The notes under the pieces: model-generated
What the model saw: only the letters and a program-made list of their open reading frames with translations
The model's database searches: none
What the model was told of the DNA's origin: nothing
From: Planctomycetota bacterium
GTDB taxonomy: Bacteria > Planctomycetota > Planctomycetia > Isosphaerales > Isosphaeraceae
Length of the DNA: 64,000 bases
Assembly (NCBI GenBank): GCA_028291545.1
Contig: JAQGHR010000065.1
Location: 1 to 64,000, forward strand
Direction: 5' to 3'
Shown: in pieces, positions 1-33,754 of the stretch
Position numbering within the stretch: the first letter of the stretch is position 1
Layout of the letters: each line of letters starts with the position of its first letter
Made by a program: the position numbers and the translations under genes

Positions 1-170
1 ATGACCGGATCACGGCCTCTCGGGCCAGGCTAACCTGCGGGCAGGGAGCACCAAGGAGAGTACGGCCACCGACCCACGCCACGGTCCAGGCTACGCCGCG
101 CCGAGCGGCGGGGCAAGACGCACCCGATCCTCGTTCACGCCGCCCCGGGAGCGGACGAAGGCCGCAGGAT

Positions 171-270
171 GGTTAACCTTGCGCTGCAGCGGACCCCGCA
201 CCGCCGCGGCACTTCCCGTGGTATCATGCGTATCTCGGCGGTGCGGGTCCGCTGAGCTTTTGCGTTAGGC
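171..270 (+). repeat. attC-like integron recombination site (complete)
   Basis: R''-like GGTTAAC (171-177) and R' GTTAGGC (264-270) flank an imperfect palindrome: GCAGCGGACCcCGCACCGCC ... GGCGGTGCGGGTCCGCTGAGC. The ORF starts 8 nt after R'. Confidence 0.75.
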
Positions 271-277
271 GGCGGAC

Positions 278-622
278 ATGAAGGCACCCACCCATACCGT
301 TACCCTGTCGCCGCCGCTGCGCCGCCTGCTCCACGACCACCAGATCTTCTGCTCCGCGGACTGCTGCCGAGAGCGGGCCTTCGAGATCACCGAGGGCTCG
401 ATCTCGCGCTGGCTGGACTCCGAGCGCACCGACCGCACGGCGGAGCTCGCCGCGGAGATCCACCGCGTCGCCTCCGACGTACAAGGAGCCTCTGGGTGCG
501 TCTACCTGGCGGTGCCCGGCCTCAAATCTGAGTGGGGCGGGGACCAGTTCCGGACCTTCTGGGGGCACCTGCGATCAACCTACTCTCTGGCCGCAGAAGC
601 CCGCCAGCGAGCCCGCGCCTAA
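278..622 (+). CDS. hypothetical protein, probable integron cassette ORF
   Basis: 114 aa ORF lying between two attC-like sites; its stop codon overlaps the R'' box (GCCTAAC) of the next site. Confidence 0.6.
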   Translation: MKAPTHTVTLSPPLRRLLHDHQIFCSADCCRERAFEITEGSISRWLDSERTDRTAELAAEIHRVASDVQGASGCVYLAVPGLKSEWGGDQFRTFWGHLRSTYSLAAEARQRARA

Positions 623-716
623 CCTCGCGCTGCAGCGGACCCCGGCCGAGGCGGGCGCTATCAGGTAACATCAGGGCTGTTGCTCCGCGGCCGGGGCGTT
701 GAGCTTTGGCCGCCCG
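617..716 (+). repeat. attC-like site (second copy, degraded 3' side)
   Basis: GCCTAACCTCGCGCTGCAGCGGACCCCGGCCG ... CGGCCGGGGCGTTGAGCTTTGG. Shares AACCT(T/C)GCGCTGCAGCGGACCCC and (C/T)TGAGCTTT with the first site; the terminal GTTAGGC is not preserved. Confidence 0.6.
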
Positions 717-778
717 GCGGACGGAGTGGATGCCGGGACCGTACCGAACTCGACGCTGAGGGGTTTCGAACGCGACCG

Positions 779-1753
779 ATGGAACGTATAGGCTGGCTCC
801 TCCTGGCGTGCGCCGTTGCCTACGGATGCGCCCTGGCCGTCCCGCTCCTGGGATGGTGGTCTCGGGGACGGCTTCGGAACCCGGCAGGTTGGTGCGCTGC
901 GGTCGGAGCCCTGGCCTGTCCGTTACTCATTCCCGCCGATCTGGTGGTGTTTCGGGCGGCGTCGGCGTTCGTTTCGACCGACGTCGTCTTCAAGATGGTC
1001 GATTTTCTCCGGCACCATCGCCGCGAGTGGGATGGTCTTGTCGCCCGCGAATACTGCCGCTTCCTGATCCCTTTCCCCGTGCTCTCTATCGTCTATCCCG
1101 ACCACAAGCGTCGGCTTGCGCGTCCTGATTGCCCCTGGCCGCATATCGTGCGGATTCTCGGCGGGACGGCGGGCGTCGCGGCGGGGATCGTGCTCGTGAG
1201 GACGCTCGCGGCGAATGCGATCTTTCGATCGTCCCCCGCGCTCGACCATGCCTTGAGGTTGGTGATCTTCGTCCCGACGATCGAAGCGATCTCGCGCGTG
1301 CTTCATGGGATCGAACGGCTGGCCGGCTTCGACACGACTCCGATTATCCGGAACGCCTTCCTGTCTCGGACCGTCTCCGAGTTCTGGCGTCGGTACAACG
1401 GTCGGATGCACGACTGGTATGATCGCAACGTCTTCCGCCCGTCCGGCGGCCGGCGTGCGCCGACCCGCGCGGTGGGGCTCGTCTTCCTCGTCAGCGGCCT
1501 GCATCACGAATTGATGTTCGCGATCGCCACCTCGGGATTCACGGGTTATCAGCTGGCCTTCTTCCTGGCTCAGGCCCCGGCCGTGCTGGCCTCGGGACGG
1601 CTTGAGCGAGTGGCGAGGCGGGGCGGGATCGCGGGGAAGATCCTGGCCCACGGCGTCACGATCCTCTTCCTGTCCGTGACTTCCGTCCTGTTCTTCCACG
1701 GCGTTAGCCAGGTGTTTCCCTCGATCCTTGCGAACGGGTCGCCGTTGCCGTAG
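779..1753 (+). CDS. MBOAT / wax-synthase-like membrane-bound O-acyltransferase
   Basis: Polytopic protein with FWRRYNGRMHDWYDRNVFRP and SGLHHELMF (MBOAT-type conserved histidine). Confidence 0.7.
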   Translation: MERIGWLLLACAVAYGCALAVPLLGWWSRGRLRNPAGWCAAVGALACPLLIPADLVVFRAASAFVSTDVVFKMVDFLRHHRREWDGLVAREYCRFLIPFPVLSIVYPDHKRRLARPDCPWPHIVRILGGTAGVAAGIVLVRTLAANAIFRSSPALDHALRLVIFVPTIEAISRVLHGIERLAGFDTTPIIRNAFLSRTVSEFWRRYNGRMHDWYDRNVFRPSGGRRAPTRAVGLVFLVSGLHHELMFAIATSGFTGYQLAFFLAQAPAVLASGRLERVARRGGIAGKILAHGVTILFLSVTSVLFFHGVSQVFPSILANGSPLP

Positions 1754-1764
1754 GTGACGACCCC

Positions 1765-1935
1765 GCCGATGGACCTCCGAACCTCGCGCTGCCGCAACCC
1801 AGCCCCGACGCCTGGCGCGACAGGCCCGAGAGCCGGCGAAGCTCGTAGGCACGCTCGCATTCGGTCATCGCCTGCGCCAGGTACGCCTCGCCCTTGGTCA
1901 GCAACGCGTACTCCAGCCGCGCCAGCTTGTGCGCC
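1765..1935 (-). pseudogene. C-terminal remnant of an IS transposase
   Basis: Minus-strand translation ...FSDPAHKLARLEYALLTKGEAYLAQAMTECERAYELRRLSGLSRQASGLG resembles IS transposase C-termini. No full ORF. IS family not assigned. Confidence 0.5.
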
Positions 1936-1966: not shown

Positions 1967-3181
1967 TCAGAAGGGGCCGGAGCCGCCGGCGCCGATGGTG
2001 GTCCCGGTCCCGCTACCGGTCTGACCGATCCCGCCCGTGGTGATTCCTCCTGTTCCGGATGAACCCGCATTCTGTCCGCCGAACCCCGTCGCGGTGCCTC
2101 CGAGACTCGTGCCGCCAAGAGTTGTGCCGCCGAGGCCGGTTCCCGTTCCGGTCGTGCCGGTTCCCGTTCCGGTCGTGCCGATGCCGGTCCCGGTCGTGCC
2201 GGTGCCAATCGGGCCGATGATGGTGCCCGGACTGATCGGGCCGATGAACGTGCCCGTGCCGGTGCCGCCGATGGCGGTCCCGGTCCCAGTCGTCCCGGTG
2301 CCGAGGCCGGTTCCCGTTCCGGTCGTGCCCGTTCCGGTTGTAACCGTCCCGGTGCCGGTCGTACCAGTCGTGCCGGTTCCGGTTGTACCCGTCCCGGTTC
2401 CGGTCGTACCAGTCGTGCCGGTGCCGGTGGTGCTGGTTCCGGTGCTCGTGCCGGTGGTACTGCTCCCGGTGCCGGTGCCGGTGCCCGTACCGGTGCCGGT
2501 CCCGGTCGTACTGGTGCCGCTAGTGCTTCCCGTCCCGGATGTCTGGGCGAGATGTTCGGGCGAATTGAGGAACGCACGTCGAACCGTGGCTCGGGAGATG
2601 CCCGCGTCAAGAATGCCGATCCAGAAGGCCTCGCCGTCGGGATCGGGAGGACGGCCGAGGATATCCGCGTACAAGGAATCCACGAATTCCTGGACCCGCG
2701 ACCCGGTGGTCAACTGGCTCGCCCGGGAGCCGCCGCCGTTCCCACCGCTTTGGGCGGAGATCCCCGAGGAATTCAGAAAGGCGGATCGGACGACCGAGCG
2801 GGGCGTCCCTCCCAAGAGCACGCCGACCCAGAAGGCCTCTCCCGTGGGGTCGGGGGATCGGCCGAGGATGCTGGTATATAGTGACTCGACGAAGCTCTGC
2901 ACGCTCGACAAGGATCTACCGCTATTGGCGGTCGTGCCGCCCACGCCCGATGTCGTTGCGGTCGTATGGACCGCCGTCCGGGTCGCTCCCGACTGGCTGC
3001 TCAGCGACCCGGATGGTGTCGCCGAGGACAGGGTTGAAAGGAGCGATCGGCTTTCGAGCGGTTCGAACCGGAGGTCACGGGGCCTGGCAGGCCGCGGCTT
3101 GGTGAACCTCATCGTATCTCTTCTCCATTCCATCAGATCCATCGCCGGGCCAATGCGCCCGACCGCCTCGCCCGGCATCAC
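1967..3181 (-). CDS. exported protein: LEPR-XLL-type N-terminus, two DUF4214-like repeats, Thr/Gly-rich low-complexity tail
   Basis: [12 protein letters not shown] near the N-terminus; two repeats of the form [27 protein letters not shown].../[27 protein letters not shown]...; long GTGTTGTG tail. The true start may be the ATG at 3112. Confidence 0.8.
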
Positions 3182-3483
3182 CTAGGACGGCCCCGGGACA
3201 CGCTCCAGACCGGGCGAGACGAAGGCGAAAAAGTGCAACCTCCATGCCATTGAGTTAAAACATGCAAGAGCGTCAATGATTCGGCGTCGAGCCCGGTCCA
3301 CCGCCTGATCGCGGGGAGCGGAGGACGGGGCAAAGTGGCCGGGCATGGGCGCTCCTGGCCATCCGGAAAAACGCCGAGATCGGGGGGACTCGGCGGCGTC
3401 GATGGCGGTGGGTCGTCGCTCACGCAACGGCCCGGTCACGCGGGTGGCGTCCCGGGAGAGGAGGCTTCCGATGGCCCGCCAAC

Positions 3484-3570: not shown

Positions 3571-7275
<3,705 letters not shown>

Positions 7276-33618: not shown

Positions 33619-33754
33619 GTGCGCCCTCCGCTCAAGATCCACGCTCGGGGCATCCCGCCCGCCGAGGTGAGCGATGATAACACGCGGAGGCGACGCGGTG
33701 TGTCGGGTCCACTGCCGCGCGAGGGTTGGTTGTCACTCAGGAGAGGTAGGTCCG

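What the first reader, a model, noticed from the sequence alone, without database searches (positions are those of the whole stretch)
171..716. Integron attC-like sites flanking a small ORF, with no integrase in view (CALIN-like fragment)
Site 1 (171-270) has R' GTTAGGC, a near-consensus R'' and a long imperfect palindrome (GCAGCGGACCcCGCACCGCC / GGCGGTGCGGGTCCGCTGAGC) with an unpaired base, as expected of a folded attC. A 114 aa ORF starts 8 nt later, and its stop codon lies in the R'' (GCCTAAC) of a second, closely related site that has a degraded R'. Repeat, tight ORF, repeat is the classic gene-cassette layout. Sedentary integrons in Planctomycetes are poorly characterised and the cassette protein has no family I recognise.
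Basis: partly seen in the sequence, partly recalled or inferred. Interest (0 to 1): 0.75.

Follow-up and report, generated by a model that had tools for sequence, protein, structure and literature searches.

The report
End of a planctomycete integron array
The start of this contig carries the tail of an ordinary chromosomal gene-capture system (an integron) of an Isosphaeraceae planctomycete; its integrase sits on another contig of the same genome, and a mobile element that seems to home in on the capture sites abuts the first site.

Summary
Window 171-270 is a genuine attC site: an own-genome covariance model trained without it and its closest relative scores it 83.8 bits (E 1e-19). Window 617-718 is a decayed second attC (46.5 bits, E 8e-10). 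The 114-aa ORF between them is a cassette gene, a borderline DUF6331 match, with its stop codon inside the second R''. A third remnant (about 1776-1851) follows an MBOAT acyltransferase ORF. "No integrase in view" is a contig-edge effect: the same assembly (an Isosphaeraceae MAG, 164 contigs) has a full IntI (455 bits) beside an attI-like core and an attC on contig C59, and about 20 attC in all, including a 9-site array. CALIN versus broken-off array end cannot be decided from this assembly. AttC of this type occur in 29 of 45 family genomes and IntI in 9, and a Planctomycetes attC model is already published: a new member of a known kind. It is homologous to the noncoding region upstream of an IS110-like transposase gene, so it is probably the left end of an attC-targeting insertion sequence, which also explains the contig breaks.

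The parts
1..170 (-). Probable left end / noncoding region of an IS110-like insertion sequence (incomplete at the contig start), abutting R'' of attC 1; its transposase gene would read leftwards, off the contig
   Evidence: 96-98% identical repeat at 4 places in the genome, all directly against an attC R''; 73% over 171 bp to the region just upstream of a transposase start codon in relative G003; that protein's N-terminus matches genes annotated IS110 family transposase
171..270 (+). attC site 1, complete (R'' 171-177 GGTTAAC, R' 264-270 GTTAGGC)
   Evidence: leave-out covariance model R2 83.8 bits, E 1.4e-19; R1 97.9 bits; fold z -4.3; BLASTN copies
278..622 (+). Cassette ORF, 114 aa, DUF6331 (function unknown)
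   Evidence: Pfam PF19856 26.1 bits vs cut-off 25, E 1e-5; GC by codon position 0.67/0.55/0.86, the same pattern as rpoB in this window, whereas the equally long antisense ORF 224-568 has its high-GC position first
617..718 (+). attC site 2, decayed: R'' 617-623 intact, R' lost
   Evidence: R2 46.5 bits, E 8e-10; R1 42.6 bits; not in either training set; stem no longer folds better than shuffles
779..1753 (+). MBOAT acyltransferase ORF, 324 aa; second cassette or array-flanking gene
   Evidence: Pfam PF03062 42 bits vs cut-off 27; 80% identical homologue in relative G043, 1.1 kb behind a 3-attC array
1776..1851 (+). attC site 3 remnant (CGAACCTCGCGCTGCCGC ... GCGAAGCTCGTAGGC)
   Evidence: exact match to AACCTYGCGCTGCMGC at 1780-1795 on the array strand, 27 nt after the MBOAT stop; all matches off the array in the window have 3 mismatches; covariance model only 4.7 bits, i.e. 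not significant on its own

Best explanation
Bases 171 to about 1850 are the distal, decaying end of a cassette array of a sedentary chromosomal integron in an Isosphaeraceae planctomycete. Cassettes (ORF plus attC) are taken up by the integrase IntI, which recombines the folded single-stranded attC at R'; the IntI encoded on contig C59 of the same genome is the likely actor. Here one intact attC, one attC without R' and one remnant lie in order towards rpoB, so the DUF6331 cassette keeps a good site only on its left side. The first attC is directly abutted by the left end of an IS110-like insertion sequence that sits at the same base of four different attC in the genome; its repeats probably broke the assembly here. 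Shown: attC identity, copy number, array spacing, IntI, repeat position. Inferred: that IntI acts on these sites, that the array is functional or fossil, and that the repeat is a site-specific IS.
For: attC by leave-out covariance model and 20 genome hits above 40 bits; C33 array of 9 attC with gaps of 257-773 bp, with the longest ORF's stop within 12 nt of the next attC in most cassettes; IntI 455 bits, cut-off 265, over the full model; on C59 intI and cassette 1 are divergent, with GTTAGGC at 726-732 between them and cassette 1's stop within the attC R''; same attC type in 29 of 45 family genomes and IntI in 9 of 45; IS-end evidence.
Against: No read or long-contig evidence joins contig C80 to C59 or C33. 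The two R'-less sites suggest that part of this stretch can no longer be mobilised. The IS interpretation rests on the noncoding region; no transposase gene belonging to it is in this MAG.
Confidence: 0.9

Rival explanations
1. True CALIN: a cassette cluster at its own chromosomal locus next to rpoB, unconnected to the integron on C59, formed by off-target cassette insertion by IntI or by rearrangement.
For: Complete relatives show this layout: G001 has intI plus an array near 4.63 Mb and a separate integrase-free array at 5.537-5.549 Mb; G040 has intI plus an array near 2.70-2.71 Mb and further attC clusters near 2.05, 3.37 and 6.93 Mb. In the own genome attC sites lie on many contigs, some far from contig ends (C151, C111, C158).
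Against: The window starts at the contig end, so what lies to its left is unknown; draft assemblies overcount CALIN (PMC9024848).
Confidence: 0.5
2. Cut-off distal end of the one complete integron (C59 to unknown cassettes to C80).
For: C59 leaves its contig inside a cassette, C80 enters with an array running in the compatible direction, and the sites decay outwards.
Against: C33 and C69 also enter from a contig end with the same IS-attC start, so at most one of the three can be the end of the C59 array; nothing favours C80.
Confidence: 0.35
3. Not an integron: a chance palindrome or a repeat family (REP- or MITE-like).
For: The sites are palindromic and repeated.
Against: R'/R'' boxes, tandem same-strand spacing with one ORF per interval, stop codons in R'', IntI in the genome, and family-wide arrays next to intI.
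Confidence: 0.01
4. Window 1-170 is an ORF-less gene cassette or an attI copy rather than an IS end.
For: It abuts an attC and shows no ORF of 60 aa or more.
Against: No match to the C59 attI region in the blastn comparison; copies 96-98% alike are followed by attC that are less alike, unlike copies of one cassette; homologous to the upstream region of an IS110-like transposase gene outside any attC in G003.
Confidence: 0.15

Closest known systems
Sedentary chromosomal integron / CALIN (IntegronFinder classes; PMC9024848, PMC8618304)
   Same: Cassette ORFs separated by same-strand attC of about 100 bp with R''/L''/L'/R' boxes, conserved attC within the lineage, IntI in the genome, decayed distal sites
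   Different: No difference of principle found; link to the integrase unresolved because of the contig end
Planctomycetes attC covariance model (Ghaly et al. 2021, PMC8352920)
   Same: Planctomycete chromosomal attC with a conserved, taxon-typical structure
   Different: Their model was not available here, so no direct score; ours is built from Isosphaeraceae sites only
IS1111-attC group (ISKpn4, ISPst6; Tetu & Holmes 2008, Post & Hall 2009, seekRNA paper PMC11187229)
   Same: Insertion sequence with a long noncoding region found at a fixed position at one end of attC sites
   Different: The noncoding region is upstream of the transposase gene in the relative G003, as in IS110-type rather than IS1111-type elements; the own transposase is missing, and subterminal repeats and the right end could not be examined

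Membership tests
attC recombination site | R'' (RYYYAAC) and complementary R' (GTTRRRY) at the two ends | tested here: met
   Site 1: R' GTTAGGC exact, R'' GGTTAAC one mismatch; site 2: R'' exact, R' lost
attC recombination site | Imperfect stem with an unpaired base in L'' | tested here: met
   Site 1 folds with one unpaired base in GCTGCAGC opposite GCTGAGC. On the bottom strand the unpaired base reads C; from general knowledge G is the usual one
attC recombination site | Recombined by IntI through the folded bottom strand | not testable with these tools
   Needs an in vivo or in vitro recombination assay
CALIN | Cluster of at least 2 attC without an integron integrase | tested here: inconclusive
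   Two covariance-model sites and no integrase gene hit on contig C80, but the cluster touches the contig end
Complete integron (same genome) | IntI of the integron subfamily | tested here: met
   C59: TIGR02249 454.9 bits, cut-off 265, profile positions 1-314 of 315
Complete integron (same genome) | attI and cassettes divergent from intI | tested here: met
   GTTAGGC at C59:726-732, cassette 1 199-627 (-), attC 103-204 (-), intI (+)
IS1111-attC / IS110 family element (window 1-170) | DEDD transposase gene next to the noncoding region | tested here: inconclusive
   Present next to the homologous region in G003, N-terminal 81 aa only, tblastn to genes annotated IS110 family transposase but no Pfam DEDD match; not recovered in this MAG
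IS1111-attC / IS110 family element (window 1-170) | Same insertion position in several attC | tested here: met
   4 of 4 copies join at GGATGGTTAAC in the R'' of an attC
IS110 / IS1111 element guided by a noncoding RNA | Guide segment complementary to the target in the noncoding region | tested here: inconclusive
   7-nt CTAACCT match to R''/spacer, but 898 of 1000 shuffles reach the same best score

The most novel reading that the evidence does not exclude
The 213-bp repeat is the left end of an IS110-type (noncoding region upstream of the transposase gene) insertion sequence whose guide RNA targets attC R'' sites, evolved independently of the IS1111-attC group, so that attC arrays of planctomycetes are the landing sites of an RNA-guided transposon.
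Probability: 0.35. Interest if true: 0.5.

Novelty: new member of a known kind. Interest (0 to 1): 0.3.

Why it matters
It adds a clear case to the integrons of Planctomycetota and shows that in Isosphaeraceae attC arrays are far more widespread (29 of 45 genomes) than the integrase (9 of 45), which makes the family useful for asking how integrase-free arrays arise. If the IS reading holds, it would be a further, probably independent, group of IS110-like elements that use attC sites as targets, a natural example of guide-determined targeting of a repeated, structured site.

Tried and rejected
Rfam: no match at the sites; the library returned no attC-type family. Guide-RNA match in the IS noncoding region: not above shuffles, and the RNA folds of that region are not significant. 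Rfam search of the C151 copy of the repeat: nothing above any gathering score. The IS110 transposase at the end of C158, first suspected to be the missing one: its upstream sequence does not match the repeat. Searches of plasmids with the cassette protein and with the repeat: no match. G259's copy of the noncoding region: no transposase gene recognised next to it among its ORFs. The class-level search for the repeat scored only two candidates per genome, so it undercounts. The 23-bit model match at window 33637-33723 was not pursued: intergenic, with nothing cassette-like noticed around it.

Full report
What was checked. The window is bases 1-64000 of contig C80 (133 kb) of an incomplete genome of 6.0 Mb in 164 contigs, 78% complete. 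The closest named carrier of its integrase is an Isosphaeraceae MAG (JANXSX010000039, 85% identity over the 240 residues present), so this is a planctomycete of that family or close to it. The window starts at the very end of the contig.

The attC sites are real. Site 1 has all boxes at the stated coordinates. BLASTN of the site finds more than a dozen further long matches in the genome. To avoid circularity a covariance model was built from 13 sites that exclude site 1 and its nearest relative on C151; it scores site 1 at 83.8 bits (E 1.4e-19) and site 2 at 46.5 bits (E 8e-10), and nothing else in the 64 kb above 24 bits. Site 1 as single-stranded DNA is more stable than 200 of 200 shuffles on either strand; site 2 is not. 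Site 2 has lost R' and part of the stem. A third remnant follows the MBOAT ORF: an exact 16-base match to the conserved 5' part of attC, on the array strand, 27 nt after the stop; all matches off the array in the window have three mismatches. It is not significant by the covariance model (4.7 bits). The homologous MBOAT region of relative G043 is followed by an equally weak attC-like stretch (10.7 bits), which suggests, without proving it, that an attC once followed MBOAT in both.

The ORFs. The 114-aa ORF is a borderline but above-threshold member of DUF6331, and its codon-position GC pattern is that of real genes of this genome while the antisense ORF of equal length has the mirrored pattern. 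The MBOAT ORF has an 80% identical homologue in G043, 1.1 kb behind a three-attC array and directly after a folK-like gene (recognised by eye), so it may be a cassette or a chromosomal gene that flanks arrays.

The integrase exists. TIGR02249 finds one integrase over the cut-off, on C59 (454.9 bits against 265). Next to it, in the divergent orientation, lie a GTTAGGC core (attI-like), a 142-aa cassette ORF whose stop falls in R'', and an attC, after which the contig ends. C33 has nine attC in a row with gaps of 257-773 bp; in most intervals the longest ORF ends within 12 nt of the next attC. In all, 20 sites in the genome score above 40 bits.

Family context. The model finds attC in 29 of 45 genomes of the family and IntI (over the cut-off) in 9 of 45. 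Two of the better assembled relatives show both an integrase-linked array and separate integrase-free arrays on one chromosome (G001, G040). Because several genomes are incomplete, the 29 versus 9 contrast is indicative only. Integrons in Planctomycetota are on record (PMC8618304), and a Planctomycetes-specific attC model exists (PMC8352920).

CALIN or array end. This cannot be decided. The site cluster touches the contig end; draft assemblies are known to produce false CALIN in this way (PMC9024848). I put separate CALIN at about one half, end of the complete integron at about one third, and leave the rest open.

Bases 1-170 are part of a repeat of at least 213 bp with four copies, on C80, C33, C69 and C151, 96-98% identical, each ending at the same base inside the R'' of an attC (GGATGGTTAAC), while the attC that follow are less alike. 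Three of the four copies lie at contig ends. In relative G003 a homologous region (73% over 171 bp) lies immediately upstream of an ORF whose N-terminus matches genes annotated IS110 family transposase at around 50% identity. The simplest reading is the left end of an IS110-like insertion sequence that inserts at one position of attC, comparable to the IS1111-attC group (ISKpn4, ISPst6; PMC11187229). In G003 the two copies share sequence further upstream and are not next to an attC that we saw, which would fit a different target. Weak points: the transposase gene was not recovered in this MAG, Pfam does not recognise the 81-residue fragment, the right end is unknown, and the guide match is not above chance. 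The idea that an RNA guides it to attC is therefore inference from the family, not a result. The insertion explains why R'' of site 1 deviates from the consensus and why the assembly breaks here.

Verdict. A correct observation of an ordinary thing: the decaying end of a planctomycete cassette array. New member of a known kind. The insertion-sequence end is the more interesting part and deserves its own follow-up.

Noticed in passing
window 1-170; L043 7464-7676; C33:20366-20578; C69:40591-40803: 213-bp repeat, probable left end of an IS110-like element, abutting R'' of four different attC; three copies at contig ends.
   Followed up: partly
window 1967-3181 (-) and L039 (C59) 1969-3240 (+): The two DUF4214 genes that score over the Pfam cut-off in this genome lie next to integron parts: one directly behind intI on C59, one directly behind the array end in the window; about 51% identical over 203 aa, with DNA similarity reaching upstream of the gene. 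Unexplained.
   Followed up: partly
L193 (G001:C1:5537000-5549000); L195, L196, L197 (G040:C1): Long arrays with no integrase found beside them, on chromosomes that also carry an integrase-linked array elsewhere; candidates for studying how CALIN arise.
   Followed up: no
L206 (G004:C1:176852-177796): IntI reading frame broken by two stop codons in a single-contig genome, with weak attC-like matches near by: a possible dead integron.
   Followed up: no
L043 about 6975-7005 (C151): Short perfect inverted repeat GTTAGACG...CGTCTAAC, like R' followed by R'', just upstream of a 91-aa ORF and the IS end.
   Followed up: no
window 33637-33723 (-): Isolated 23-bit attC-model match in an intergenic stretch; possibly a hairpin of another kind.
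   Followed up: no
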